From: Aminobacter ciceronei
GTDB lineage: Bacteria > Pseudomonadota > Alphaproteobacteria > Rhizobiales > Rhizobiaceae
NCBI RefSeq assembly: GCF_014138625.1
Contig: NZ_JACJHY010000014.1
Coordinates: 62,001 to 126,000 of the forward strand
Reading direction: 5' to 3'
Length of the DNA stretch: 64,000 nt
A program made the position numbers and the translations under genes. Below the pieces are notes generated by a model, which had not been told where the DNA came from, searched no databases, and was given only the letters and a program-made list of their open reading frames with translations. Shown piece after piece: positions 41,542 through 53,575 of this stretch; within the stretch, counting starts at the first letter, position 1; the number at the start of each line of letters is the position of its first letter.

Positions 41542-42765
41542 TCAGGTCTGGCAACTGCGGGCGTTGACCGGCAGCGTCAGCACTTCGCCCTCGTCACGGC
41601 GGAGGACAAAACTGTCGAAATTGGCGATGGTGGCGCAGGAGTGATTGGGGAACACCCTGACGCGGCTGCCGAGCGGCAGGGTGCGACCTCCCGCGGGTAC
41701 GAAGCCGTGCTCCTCCGACATGCGTTCGAGCGTCCACACGCCGGCGCCGCTGCCGGCGTCGGCGCCGATGACGATGCCGAAGCCGTTGCCGCCCATGCCA
41801 TGGGCGCCACGGTCGGAGCTCATCGTCTTGGAGCCGGCATCGATGATGAAATGTGTGTCGTTGGCGGCAACGACACGAGCCACCACCGAAAGCGCCAGAT
41901 CGTCGGCACTGCAGATGCCGAGGCGGAGGGCGGTGCCGTCGAGGAAGACGTAGTTGCCAGGGCGGATGCAGTCGACTGCCTGCAGCGGCGCGCCGAGACA
42001 GGTCGGCGTCGCCCCGACCGACAGGCAGGGTACATCGATGCTCAGGCCCTTCAGCATGGCGGCGAGGCCGGTTATTGCTGCCGCCTCGGTGCGGGCAACC
42101 GCGGCGAGGTTTTCTGAATCGGTAGCGGCATAGGAATGGCCGGCATGCGACAGCAGGCCGGCGAAATGCAGGCCGGGTGCTGCGGCGATCTTTTGGCAGA
42201 CAGCGATCGCCGCGGGATCGTTCGGCTTGAGGCCGACGCGACCGAGACCGACATCGACCTTGAGGAAGACGCCGATGTCGACGCCGTGGCGCACGGCAGC
42301 GGTGGAGAGCGCGTCGACGCCCATTTCGCTGGCGGCAATCGTGCGCAGTTGGGTGCCGTGCGCCTTCACCGCCGGCAGCAGGCGGTCGAGCGAACTGGCA
42401 TTGACGATCGGATAGGCGACGATGATCGAGGGGATGCCGGCCTGGACGAAGACCAGTGCCTCGCTTGGCTTGGAGGCGGTGATGCCACGGGCGCCAAGCG
42501 CCAGCTGCCGCTTCGCCAGGTCGATGCTCTTGTGCGTCTTGACGTGCGGGAACATGACGAGCCCTGCAGCATCGGCGCGGGCCTGCATCGCCTGCATGTT
42601 GCGGGCCAAGCGCGTCTCGTCGACCTCGACATAGGGTGTCGGCCATTCCGCCGCGGCCGGGCGTCTAAGGCCCTCGATCTTCAGCTGCGCTTGGGATGCG
42701 GCAATGTCGGGGCTTGTGTTGGCGGACGCAGGGGCGGCCGCCAACGACATGTTCGAAGGGGTCAT
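41542..42765 (-). CDS. D-threonine aldolase / D-serine dehydratase-like PLP enzyme (DSD1 fold)
   Basis: 407 residues of the alanine-racemase N-terminal-like, zinc-assisted PLP family that acts on D-amino acids. Marks: TPYVEVDETRLARNM, FPHVKTHKS (Schiff-base Lys76), FVQAGIPSIIVAYPIVN, GVDIGVFLKVDVGLGRVG, GLLSHAGHSYA, LSVGATPTCL (phosphate-binding turn), DCIRPGNYVFLDGT and the metal site FPNHSCATIANFD (His375, Cys377). Products would be glycine plus acetaldehyde from D-Thr, or pyruvate plus ammonia from D-Ser. A 40-residue N-terminal extension precedes the domain. It closes the minus-strand operon after the two ABC ATPases. Confidence 0.88.
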   Translation of the reverse strand: MTPSNMSLAAAPASANTSPDIAASQAQLKIEGLRRPAAAEWPTPYVEVDETRLARNMQAMQARADAAGLVMFPHVKTHKSIDLAKRQLALGARGITASKPSEALVFVQAGIPSIIVAYPIVNASSLDRLLPAVKAHGTQLRTIAASEMGVDALSTAAVRHGVDIGVFLKVDVGLGRVGLKPNDPAAIAVCQKIAAAPGLHFAGLLSHAGHSYAATDSENLAAVARTEAAAITGLAAMLKGLSIDVPCLSVGATPTCLGAPLQAVDCIRPGNYVFLDGTALRLGICSADDLALSVVARVVAANDTHFIIDAGSKTMSSDRGAHGMGGNGFGIVIGADAGSGAGVWTLERMSEEHGFVPAGGRTLPLGSRVRVFPNHSCATIANFDSFVLRRDEGEVLTLPVNARSCQT

Positions 42766-42813
42766 GTTGGGAATGCTCTGATTTGAAATAGGGAATGCTT
42801 GATAAGGCAGTCG

Positions 42814-43770
42814 TCAGCCCGCGGCCACCTGTCTTACGTAGTGGGTGGATGAGATCTGGTGCATCGGCAGCTCGACGGGCACGAAGTCGGGCGCGCGCAT
42901 GGCGCTCGGGATTTCGTCCGACATTGGCACTCGTCCTTCGGGACGGCGCGTCGGATCGGCGATCGGCACCGTCGACAAAAGCTTGCGCGTGTAGGGGTGC
43001 TGTGGGTTGCCGAAGATCGAGCGGCGGTCGCCGATCTCGACGATCTCGCCGAGATACATCACTGCGACCCGGTGGGCGATGCGCTCGACCACGGCCATGT
43101 CGTGGCTGATGAACAAAAGCGCGATCTGCATGTCGCGCTGCAAATCCATCAAAAGGTTGATGACCTGTGCCTGGATGGTGACGTCGAGCGAGGCGACCGC
43201 CTCGTCGGCGACGATCAGGCGCGGGCGGAGGGCAAGGGCGCGGGCAATGCAGATGCGCTGGCGCTGGCCGCCGGAGAAGGCGTGCGGGTAACGTTCCAGC
43301 AGCTCCGGCGCGAGCTCGACCTTGGCCATCAGCTCGGCGGCACGGGCGCGCATGGTCTCGAGCGAGCCGAGCTTGTGCACCCGCATCGGATCGATCAGCG
43401 ACTGCTCGATGGTCATGCGCGGATTGAGCGAGGAGAACGGGTCCTGGAAGACCATCTGGGCCTGGCGCCGAAACTTCGCCACGACTTGCCGCGGCGCGCC
43501 GACAAGTTCGACGCCGTCGAAGCGGATCGAGCCGGAGCGTGGCTTGTCGAGCTGCATGATCGACCGCGCGACGGTGGACTTGCCACAGCCCGACTCGCCG
43601 ACCAGCGCCAGTGTCTCGCCGGGGAAGATGTCGAAGGAGACGTTTTCAACGGCATGGACGCGGCCGGAGACATGGCCGAACAGGCCGGTCTTGAGGTCGA
43701 AGCGGGTGACCAGGTTGCGCACTTCGACCAGCGGCCGGCCAACCTCTTTCATTGGGGAGGATGCGTTCAT
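42814..43770 (-). CDS. Dipeptide/oligopeptide ABC transporter ATPase (DppF type)
   Basis: 318 residues: Walker A LVGESGCGKSTVARS, Q-loop MVFQDPFSSLNPRMT, signature AFSGGQRQRICIARAL, Walker [18 protein letters not shown], His LFISHDMAVVERIA, and the C-terminal oligopeptide extension ending NPQHPYTRKLLSTVPIADPT. Overlaps the DppD-type gene by 4 bases. Its cognate permeases are encoded divergently at 48040-49946. Confidence 0.93.
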   Translation of the reverse strand: MNASSPMKEVGRPLVEVRNLVTRFDLKTGLFGHVSGRVHAVENVSFDIFPGETLALVGESGCGKSTVARSIMQLDKPRSGSIRFDGVELVGAPRQVVAKFRRQAQMVFQDPFSSLNPRMTIEQSLIDPMRVHKLGSLETMRARAAELMAKVELAPELLERYPHAFSGGQRQRICIARALALRPRLIVADEAVASLDVTIQAQVINLLMDLQRDMQIALLFISHDMAVVERIAHRVAVMYLGEIVEIGDRRSIFGNPQHPYTRKLLSTVPIADPTRRPEGRVPMSDEIPSAMRAPDFVPVELPMHQISSTHYVRQVAAG

Positions 43771-52760: not shown

Positions 52761-52777
52761 AACCGAGGATTACGATC

Positions 52778-53575
52778 ATGAAGGTGTTCATCAGCGCCGA
52801 CATCGAAGGCACCGCCGGCATTACCGTGTGGGACGAGGCCCGCAAGGGACATGCCGCCTACGAAGAATTCCGCGAATACATGACCGACGAACTGGTGGCG
52901 GCCTGCGAGGGCGCCAAGGCTGCCGGCGCGAAGGAAGTGCTGGTCAAGGACGCGCATTCCACCGGGCGCAACCTGATCCTGTCGAAGCTGCCGGCCTATG
53001 TCACGATCGTCAGGGATTGGAGCGGTCACCCGGATATGATGATGTTCGGCATCGACGACAGCTTTTCGGCGGCGCTTTACACCGGCTATCACAACAAGGC
53101 TGGCACCGACACCAATCCGCTGGCGCATACGCTGACCGGCACCGTATCGCGGCTCCTGATCAATGGCGAGGTGGCATCCGAATACACGCTCAATGCGCTT
53201 TGTGCGGCGCGTTATGGGGTGCCGTCGGTGTTCCTGTCAGGCGATGCCGGCATGTGCGCGGAAGCCAAGCTTCTGGTGCCGCGCATCGGCACGGTTGCGA
53301 CGAGCGAGGGGTTTGGCCCGGCCACAAGATCGCTGACCCCAAAAGCCTCGGTCGCTGCGATCCGCGCCGGCGTCGAGGAAGCGCTGTCGCGCGACCTCAA
53401 ATCCTGCCTGCCGAAACTCGCCGACAGCTTCGAGCTGGTGGTCGAATACACCAACCCGCACGAAGCCTATCGCGTCAGCTGGTATCCCGGCGTCGAGCAT
53501 CCGGCGCCGCGTACATTGCGCTTCCGCGCCAGTGATTTCTTCGAGATCCAACGCGCCATTCGCTTCATCGTGTAG
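52778..53575 (+). CDS. M55 family D-aminopeptidase (DppA type)
   Basis: 265 residues. Zinc ligands expected for Bacillus subtilis DppA are in place: D8 and E10 (MKVFISADIEGTAG), H60 (VKDAHSTGRN), H105 (GYHNKAG) and a Glu in NGEVASEYTLNA. B. subtilis DppA removes N-terminal D-Ala-type residues from short peptides and forms a decamer. GAGG precedes ATG 52778. Last gene of the plus-strand arm. Together with the DAP-like hydrolase it gives two unrelated D-aminopeptidase-type enzymes in one operon. Confidence 0.93.
   Translation: MKVFISADIEGTAGITVWDEARKGHAAYEEFREYMTDELVAACEGAKAAGAKEVLVKDAHSTGRNLILSKLPAYVTIVRDWSGHPDMMMFGIDDSFSAALYTGYHNKAGTDTNPLAHTLTGTVSRLLINGEVASEYTLNALCAARYGVPSVFLSGDAGMCAEAKLLVPRIGTVATSEGFGPATRSLTPKASVAAIRAGVEEALSRDLKSCLPKLADSFELVVEYTNPHEAYRVSWYPGVEHPAPRTLRFRASDFFEIQRAIRFIV

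What the first reader, a model, noticed from the sequence alone, without database searches (positions are those of the whole stretch)
41542..53575. A two-armed locus for import and breakdown of D-amino-acid-containing peptides
One contiguous block holds a complete dipeptide-type ABC transporter, a LysR regulator, two mechanistically unrelated D-aminopeptidase-type enzymes, a D-threonine aldolase/D-serine dehydratase-like enzyme and an alpha-oxoamine synthase-family enzyme. The peptidases are a DAP-like serine hydrolase with S63xxK66, Y165 and H311, and a zinc M55 DppA-like enzyme with D8/E10/H60/H105. Neither peptidase has a signal peptide, so cleavage follows uptake. The set reads as a full route from peptide to D-amino acid to central metabolites. 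The alpha-oxoamine synthase step is unexplained and may be the novel chemistry. Sequence shows the motifs; family knowledge gives the individual activities; the joint pathway is inference.
Basis: partly seen in the sequence, partly recalled or inferred. Interest (0 to 1): 0.75.

Follow-up and report, generated by a model that had tools for sequence, protein, structure and literature searches.

The report
Rhizobial operon for using D-peptides
A rare, movable gene set in soil bacteria that most likely imports small peptides carrying mirror-image amino acids and breaks them down, including one enzyme from a familiar family whose substrate loops have been rewritten and whose reaction is unknown.

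Summary
The order is conserved: 13 of 20 homologous loci keep ATPases-LysR-SBP-permeases-S12-AOS-M55. In 199 genomes of the same family, the AOS and S12 genes each occur in 4, the same 4. The D-peptide reading gains new, indirect support. A D-serine-deaminase-type gene of one of three kinds lies in 13 of the 20 loci. In Nitratireductor a protein annotated as dipeptide epimerase sits between S12 and AOS, with no M55 found. The S12 model resembles known D-peptidases, and also esterases. A near-parallel exists in Pyrococcus (PMC2651629). The AOS-like enzyme belongs to a separate clade. It keeps the PLP residues, but its amino-acid loop is four residues shorter and a family Asn is Thr in 30 of 30 rows. 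It accompanies peptide transporters with varied peptidases and is missing from one otherwise complete operon. I favour an amino-acid racemase or similar CoA-independent role, about 40%. No activity or ligand was tested.

The parts
41542..42765 (-). DSD-like PLP/metal enzyme (D-serine / D-3-hydroxyaspartate dehydratase type), accessory gene of the left arm
   Evidence: Pfam PF01168 + PF14031; best solved relatives 3wqc and 3anu; H375-x-C377; this kind in 10 of 20 loci
42814..43770 (-). Dpp/Opp-type ATPase (DppF-like)
   Evidence: Pfam ABC_tran + oligo_HPY; conserved order
43767..44693 (-). Dpp/Opp-type ATPase (DppD-like)
   Evidence: Pfam ABC_tran + oligo_HPY
44954..45919 (-). LysR-family regulator, divergent from the SBP gene
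   Evidence: Pfam HTH_1 + LysR_substrate (the protein scanned began five codons inside the ORF)
45920..46029 (.). 110-nt divergent intergenic region, presumed shared control region
   Evidence: gap; no sigma-70-type match listed there
46030..47961 (+). Peptide-type substrate-binding protein, family 5, with signal-like N-terminus (by eye)
   Evidence: Pfam SBP_bac_5; best PDB hits HbpA/DppA-type
47972..48005 (+). 14-bp hairpin between SBP and permease genes, terminator/stabiliser-like
48040..49077 (+). Permease (DppB-like); GTG start chosen by eye
   Evidence: Pfam BPD_transp_1
49074..49946 (+). Permease (DppC-like)
   Evidence: Pfam BPD_transp_1 + OppC_N
49984..51660 (+). S12 serine hydrolase, 558 aa, with C-terminal beta domains; likely cytosolic D-peptidase
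   Evidence: Pfam Beta-lactamase; motifs; model resembles 9sn1, 2qmi, 1ei5 and esterase 7spn
51669..52760 (+). AOS-clade PLP enzyme, 363 aa, reaction unknown
52778..53575 (+). M55 DppA-like zinc D-aminopeptidase
   Evidence: Pfam PF04951; alignment to 1hi9; the only M55 match in the genome at E 0.001

Best explanation
This is an accessory operon for using environmental peptides that contain D-amino acids. A Dpp-type ABC importer brings short peptides in (inferred from family). In the cytosol the S12 enzyme and the M55 zinc enzyme hydrolyse bonds at D-residues (inferred from fold, motifs and relatives). Released D-amino acids are disposed of by whichever D-specific enzyme the host carries, in this window a DSD-like dehydratase; D-Ser or another beta-hydroxy D-amino acid is the best guess. 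The AOS-clade enzyme acts on a free amino acid from the peptide, by C-alpha proton abstraction on PLP without acyl-CoA. A racemase that interconverts D and L forms is my leading guess, about 40%; the rest is split between a lyase and a retained acyltransferase. Shown here: gene content, conserved order, exchange of D-amino-acid genes, preserved PLP residues, rewritten loop. Inferred: substrates, direction of flow, all activities.
For: Conserved order in 13 of 20 loci; S12 and AOS in the same 4 of 199 family genomes. D-serine-deaminase-type genes in 13 of 20 loci, of three kinds: DSD-like in 10, after the ATPase genes; 3gwq-like in L016, after the ATPase genes (E 7.7e-67), and in L015, just before S12 (E 1.3e-95); DsdA-type after the ATPase genes in Nitratireductor (L021, seen on L053 and L030; 497 vs cut-off 246 bits; 3ss7 E 1.8e-99). 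In L015 a DAO-family oxidase precedes it. Nitratireductor has a protein annotated as dipeptide epimerase between S12 and AOS and no M55 found in the locus. In S. meliloti pSymA a 77%-identical M55 sits with a peptide ABC transporter and D-serine ammonia-lyase. The Variovorax locus joins an annotated dipeptide epimerase, an S12 protein, M81, the AOS relative, RidA and a DAO-family oxidase. S12 model: Lip3 DL-peptidase (rank 1), Pab87 (3, 4), Ochrobactrum DAP (6). AOS: H136, D210, H213, T241, K244 and R368 of KBL kept in 30 of 30 core rows, Asn50 is Thr in 30 of 30, and the KBL 73-95 stretch is 19 instead of 23 residues in 30 of 30 (rows include identical or near-identical copies). Passages of PMC11906848 tie that loop (V79) and the PATP-loop Arg to amino-acid recognition. 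Precedent: Pab87, an S12 enzyme shown to degrade D-peptides, lies beside a PLP aminotransferase gene, a D-aminoacylase and a dipeptide ABC transporter (PMC2651629); P. horikoshii PH0138, annotated as an aminotransferase, is a racemase increased on D-allo-Ile (PMC6047364), with a locus number close to the Pab87 orthologue PH0142/PH0143.
Against: No activity or ligand was tested. S12 fold rows 2 and 5 are an esterase (IS11), and beta-lactamase-like and other esterases follow; whole-chain rmsd of the top six is 7.5-10.5 A, and the model has low confidence in stretches such as 122-138 and 155-166, near Y165. The Nitratireductor and Variovorax epimerases are below every NCBIfam cut-off listed, so their substrates are open. 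Two of the three deaminase kinds share the alanine-racemase fold, and their names rest on relatives. No gene of the three kinds was found in L017/L051, L018/L050, G108 (L052) or Ochrobactrum L038. The AOS gene is absent in L038 and lies in L023 with a Dpp transporter, a trans-3-hydroxyproline dehydratase and other genes, without S12 or M55. Variovorax and Phycisphaerales relatives keep the full loop length. Neighbourhood gives neither direction nor substrate. The Pyrococcus link rests on locus numbers in two papers, and that racemase is of another PLP subfamily.
Confidence: 0.62

Rival explanations
1. Murein-peptide scavenging: the operon is a rhizobial analogue of the B. subtilis dpp system and takes up peptidoglycan fragments (D-Ala, D-Glu, meso-DAP peptides). 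It overlaps with the best explanation but names the substrate.
For: The M55 relative is B. subtilis DppA; among the nearest epimerase models are L-Ala-D/L-Glu epimerase and DgcA, though below cut-off; in R. sullae the AOS gene lies near annotated dapF and lysA; Pab87 removes D-Ala from muropeptides (PMC2651629).
Against: D-serine-deaminase-type genes in 13 of 20 loci point to D-Ser or other beta-hydroxy D-amino acids, not usual murein residues in rhizobia (recalled); none of the ten window genes is an LD-carboxypeptidase or NlpC/P60 protein. The R. sullae locus has no Dpp operon annotated within 14 kb (annotation incomplete).
Confidence: 0.35
2. Breakdown of non-ribosomal (lipo)peptides or similar antibiotics from competitors, which often carry D-Ser, D-allo-Thr and D-Leu (recalled); the cell imports fragments for food or defence.
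For: Best Foldseek row is Lip3 DL-peptidase (its substrates not read); M81 MlrC-type peptidases occur beside the operon in Microvirga L017 and in the Variovorax locus; TonB receptor plus MFS in Variovorax.
Against: Dpp-type importers usually take short peptides (recalled), and S12 and M55 look cytosolic by eye, so large lipopeptides would have to be cut outside first.
Confidence: 0.2
3. The AOS enzyme is an ordinary acyl-CoA-dependent synthase that acylates an amino acid released from the peptide, for instance to make an aminoketone.
For: Fold and PLP residues are those of BioF/KBL/SPT (TMq 0.80-0.90 in the 50 rows listed); the carboxylate Arg is kept; Variovorax and Phycisphaerales relatives keep the full-length loop.
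Against: In 30 of 30 core rows the loop is four residues shorter and Asn50 is Thr; in the 13 aligned rows Ser185 is Pro in 11, Ala in one, Ser in one, and the N-terminus is shorter by about 20 residues at predicted starts. The host has four other AOS-family matches.
Confidence: 0.25
4. A general peptide/ester catabolism operon with no D-specificity; the D-associated family names mislead.
For: S12 proteins include many esterases; LysR and SBP give no ligand information; no deaminase-type gene found in four complete or near-complete operons.
Against: Two D-peptidase-type enzymes with exchangeable D-serine-deaminase-type genes in a conserved operon would be a large coincidence.
Confidence: 0.15

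Closest known systems
Pyrococcus abyssi Pab87 locus (S12 CubicO D-peptidase, PLP aminotransferase PAB0086, D-aminoacylase, dipeptide ABC transporter; PMC2651629, passages seen)
   Same: S12 D-peptidase-type protein, dipeptide ABC transporter and a PLP enzyme clustered together
   Different: Archaeal; PLP protein described as an aminotransferase; no M55 or LysR named in the passages; P0002 lacks the CubicO strings YAEAF/L and FFYLN
Bacillus subtilis dpp operon (DppA M55 D-aminopeptidase with DppBCDE; operon content recalled)
   Same: M55 D-aminopeptidase encoded with a dipeptide ABC transporter
   Different: No S12 hydrolase, AOS enzyme, LysR or D-serine dehydratase (recalled); P0004 scores 139.9 bits against the 430-bit equivalog cut-off
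Ochrobactrum anthropi D-aminopeptidase DAP (1ei5)
   Same: S12 catalytic domain plus further C-terminal domains; long Foldseek alignment (567 columns, TMq 0.50)
   Different: 18% identity; specificity loop and D-preference not examined
alpha-Oxoamine synthases (BioF, KBL, SPT, ALAS)
   Same: Fold, catalytic Lys, Asp, His and carboxylate Arg
   Different: Separate clade on a long branch; amino-acid loop shorter by 4, Asn50 to Thr; PATP-type loop rewritten
Pyrococcus horikoshii BAR racemase PH0138 (PMC6047364, passages seen)
   Same: Fold-type I PLP enzyme, perhaps near an S12 D-peptidase gene; activity increased on D-allo-Ile
   Different: Annotated as GABA aminotransferase, not AOS; neighbour relation inferred from locus numbers

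Membership tests
alpha-Oxoamine synthase | Fold-type I PLP core residues (KBL H136, D210, H213, T241, K244) and carboxylate Arg R368 | tested here: met
   Conserved in 30 of 30 core rows; residue roles recalled, except the Arg role (PMC11906848 passage)
alpha-Oxoamine synthase | Full-length amino-acid loop and Asn50 | tested here: not met
   19 instead of 23 residues, and Thr for Asn50, in 30 of 30 core rows
alpha-Oxoamine synthase | Acyl-CoA-dependent C-C bond formation | not testable with these tools
   needs an enzyme assay
BioF/KBL/SPT/ALAS equivalogs | NCBIfam equivalog cut-off | tested here: not met
   best 196.5 bits vs 426.45 for bioF; none of 11 rows over its cut-off
M55 peptidase | Pfam PF04951 over cut-off and DppA residues D8, E10, H60, H104, H115, E133 | tested here: met
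   283.9 bits vs 25; residues aligned; their roles recalled
B. subtilis DppA equivalog | NCBIfam NF058634 cut-off 430 bits | tested here: not met
   139.9 bits
S12 / beta-lactamase family | SxxK, YxN, HxG motifs | tested here: met
   S63-K66, Y165-N167, H311-G313
D-aminopeptidase DAP (PRK13128) | Equivalog cut-off 443 bits | tested here: not met
   33.1 bits; fold resemblance only
CubicO protease (Pab87 type) | YAEAF/L and FFYLN motifs | tested here: not met
   strings absent from P0002; motif list from PMC2651629
D-serine / D-3-hydroxyaspartate dehydratase (DSD type) | Ala_racemase_N + D-ser_dehydrat domains and H-x-C pair | tested here: met
   metal role recalled
D-threonine aldolase | H-x-D metal pair (recalled) and retro-aldol activity | not tested
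   window has H-x-C; alignments to aldolase entries were not printed
BhcC 3-hydroxy-D-aspartate aldolase | NCBIfam NF045642 cut-off 690 | tested here: not met
   135 bits
Dpp/Opp ABC importer | SBP family 5, two BPD permeases, two oligo_HPY ATPases | tested here: met
   peptide specificity not testable here

The most novel reading that the evidence does not exclude
The AOS-clade enzyme founds a new functional branch of the alpha-oxoamine synthase family: a CoA-independent amino-acid racemase or lyase that serves the catabolism of imported peptides containing D- or unusual amino acids. It was recruited into operons that pair one peptide importer with whatever D-peptidase, dipeptide epimerase and D-amino-acid deaminase the host can supply.
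Probability: 0.4. Interest if true: 0.65.

Novelty: new variant of a known kind. Interest (0 to 1): 0.48.

Why it matters
Bacterial use of environmental D-peptides is known mostly from single enzymes (recalled). This operon is compact and conserved, and its exchangeable genes are a natural experiment on which steps are required. The AOS clade is a clear, testable case of a biosynthetic enzyme family that may have been turned to catabolism. If it is a racemase or lyase, BioF- or acetyltransferase-like annotations beside peptide transporters need revision.

Tried and rejected
Considered and set aside: (a) that the AOS gene is the host's BioF, KBL or HemA: the genome has four other family matches and the protein is under every listed cut-off. 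(b) That the DSD-like gene is core: this kind is in 10 of 20 loci. (c) That P0001 is the BhcC aldolase: far below cut-off. (d) That the SBP could reveal the ligand: its solved relatives are named for peptides, haem, nickel and others. (e) Promoter and terminator scan: 1 promoter-like site against 2.3 in shuffles, 10 terminator-like against 7.5. (f) Wider samples: AOS in 2 of 397 (order) and 2 of 398 (phylum), the same two genomes, samples overlapping; with the Variovorax protein 1 of 385 (class; own genome only). (g) Literature: ten searches listed no title or abstract start that describes this operon; beyond listings I saw only passages of PMC11906848, PMC2651629 and PMC6047364.

Rows: the residue count used 32 AOS-like proteins, 30 core rows plus L029 and L024; they include the window twice (L001, L002) and other identical or near copies. 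Left out as canonical or other: L025, L033, L034 and the 26%-identity hits in L010, L011, L014. The tree and first alignment used 13 core rows; L001, L003-L005, L007, L009-L011, L013, L014, L019, L020, L026, L030-L032 were left out there and L056 was found later. L005/L053 and L021 are taken as one contig, L026/L049 and L016 as one genome, from matching lengths and places. Of 16 plasmid records with an AOS match I opened eight.
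Full report
What is there. The region holds ten genes in two divergent arms. Leftward from a LysR gene (44954-45919) run two Dpp-type ATPase genes (overlapping by 4 nt) and, 48 nt further, a DSD-like gene. Rightward run a family-5 substrate-binding protein, two permeases, an S12 serine hydrolase, an AOS-family PLP enzyme and an M55 peptidase, with gaps of 78, -4, 37, 8 and 17 nt. 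It is the genome's only M55 match at E 0.001.

Is the set conserved? A scan of GTDB genomes with the AOS protein gave 20 loci. In 13 of 20 (L006-L014, L016-L019) the order AtpF-AtpD-LysR-SBP-PermB-PermC-S12-AOS-M55 is complete; in L013 the M55 is a 62%-identical form set further downstream. L015 has S12-AOS-M55 beside a different Dpp operon; L021 has the core but no M55; L020 is a short contig with S12 and AOS; L022-L024 carry the AOS gene with other peptide-type transporters; L025 is an ordinary BioF-like gene. Named hosts of the core include Aminobacter, Ensifer, Mesorhizobium, Microvirga and Phyllobacterium. AOS matches lie on 16 plasmid records, nine of them Ensifer. In 199 genomes sampled from the window's family, 4 carry the AOS gene and 4 the S12 gene, and they are the same 4. 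By my own arithmetic a full overlap has a chance of about 1 in 6e7, ignoring kinship; two of the four share a genus. The operon is rare and patchy, and mostly travels as a unit.

Exchangeable D-amino-acid genes. The DSD-like gene follows AtpF in 10 of 20 loci. L016 has there a protein matching the D-serine deaminase 3gwq (E 7.7e-67). L015 has one of the same kind just before S12 (E 1.3e-95), after a DAO-family oxidase. Nitratireductor (L021, seen on L053 and L030) has after AtpF a DsdA-type D-serine ammonia-lyase that passes two curated cut-offs (497 vs 246 and 420.3 vs 368.25 bits) and matches 3ss7. That makes 13 of 20 loci. None of these kinds was found by tblastn in L017/L051, L018/L050, L052 (G108) or Ochrobactrum L038, nor in L022 and L023; L024 was tested with the DSD-like protein alone. 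Between S12 and AOS, Nitratireductor has an enolase-superfamily protein annotated as dipeptide epimerase and no M55 match; its best NCBIfam models are L-Ala-D/L-Glu epimerase and muconate cycloisomerase, all below cut-off. Different enzymes of like purpose in one operon speak for D-peptides more than any single family name, but the purposes are themselves named by family.

Related loci. An M55 77% identical sits in S. meliloti pSymA with a peptide ABC transporter, an ornithine-cyclodeaminase-family gene and a D-serine ammonia-lyase that passes one of two cut-offs (455.1 vs 246; 360.2 vs 368.25). Variovorax carries a TonB receptor, an annotated dipeptide epimerase, an S12 protein, MFS, M81, an AOS relative, RidA and a DAO-family oxidase; its S12 protein is only distantly related to the window's (26% over 313 residues). 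R. sullae has the AOS gene near an AstE/AspA-type protein annotated M14, lysA, dapF and an ornithine-cyclodeaminase-family gene. S. meliloti AK83 has two copies, one after a Dpp operon with an amidase and one after a Dpp-type operon with a C69 dipeptidase. The Bipolaricaulota MAG L022 has SBP, two permeases and an S9 peptidase before AOS, and an M42 gene nearby. Ochrobactrum quorumnocens has the core with S12 and M55 but no AOS. So the AOS enzyme is a recurrent partner of peptide importers, not of one peptidase.

The S12 enzyme. AlphaFold from 13 sequences gave mean pLDDT 76.9, with weak stretches near Y165. Foldseek's best six rows are Lip3 DL-peptidase (1), esterase IS11 (2, 5), Pab87 (3, 4) and O. 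anthropi DAP (6), over 484-602 columns with rmsd 7.5-10.5 A. By sequence the best solved relative is Pab87, then IS11. This supports DAP-like as architecture, not as specificity.

The AOS enzyme. By sequence and fold it lies among BioF, SPT, KBL and ThAOS. Over all fetched rows (30 core rows, copies included) the PLP residues and carboxylate Arg are kept, Asn50 of KBL is Thr, and the KBL 73-95 stretch is 19 instead of 23 residues. In the 13 rows aligned first, Ser185 is Pro in 11, Ala in one and Ser in one, and twenty positions are invariant in the clade but absent from six other family members. In passages of PMC11906848 the loop with V79 governs amino-acid choice and an Arg binds the carboxylate. 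Variovorax and Phycisphaerales relatives keep the loop length. A maximum-likelihood tree gives the 13 plus Variovorax 99/97 support, and 100/100 with Phycisphaerales, on a long branch from BioF, KBL and HemA; long end branches make inner placement unsure.

How it probably works. [quoted passage not shown] A precedent exists. Pab87, an S12 enzyme assayed on D-peptides, lies beside a PLP aminotransferase gene, a D-aminoacylase and a dipeptide ABC transporter (PMC2651629). In P. horikoshii, PH0138, annotated as an aminotransferase, proved to be a racemase increased on D-allo-Ile (PMC6047364), and the Pab87 orthologue there is PH0142/PH0143. That PAB0086 corresponds to PH0138 is my inference. If so, racemisation is a natural role for a PLP enzyme in such an operon.

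Verdict. The operon is a new variant of known D-peptide utilisation loci. What could be new is the chemistry of the AOS clade.

Noticed in passing
window 47972-48005: A 14-bp hairpin directly after the SBP gene and before the permease gene, the longest stem among the listed terminator-like sites; it may raise SBP over permease expression.
   Followed up: no
L013 11480-12271; plasmid hits H42, H44-H49, H52: In several Ensifer loci the M55 gene near AOS is a form about 62% identical, some 370-390 nt downstream of AOS where this was measured (L013, L031), as if one M55 had replaced another.
   Followed up: partly
L039 4326-9798: A 63%-identical M55 lies with a P1-family peptidase, an amino-acid ABC transporter and a D-amino-acid transaminase on an Ochrobactrum plasmid: another D-amino-acid locus.
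   Followed up: no
L017 11907-17026: Beside the Microvirga operon lie an M81 peptidase, an RpiR-like regulator (by eye), a PALP-fold PLP enzyme that looks like a D-cysteine desulfhydrase (fold, name by eye) and an AstE/AspA-type protein.
   Followed up: partly
L023 10001-18615: In Mesorhizobium composti the AOS gene is followed by a trans-3-hydroxy-L-proline dehydratase (over cut-off) and genes that look like 2-aminoethylphosphonate use (by eye; one is Aminotran_5).
   Followed up: partly
L044 (G040:C8:59960-61597): The S12 match in this genome is listed with one in-frame TGA; with an open frame of 555 aa this may simply be the natural stop. Left as seen.
   Followed up: no
window 54328-63069: Downstream of the operon lie a solute-binding-protein transporter operon (SBP_bac_8; permeases and ATPase by eye), an amidohydrolase-like gene (by eye), an M20 peptidase and an adenine-deaminase-type gene.
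   Followed up: partly
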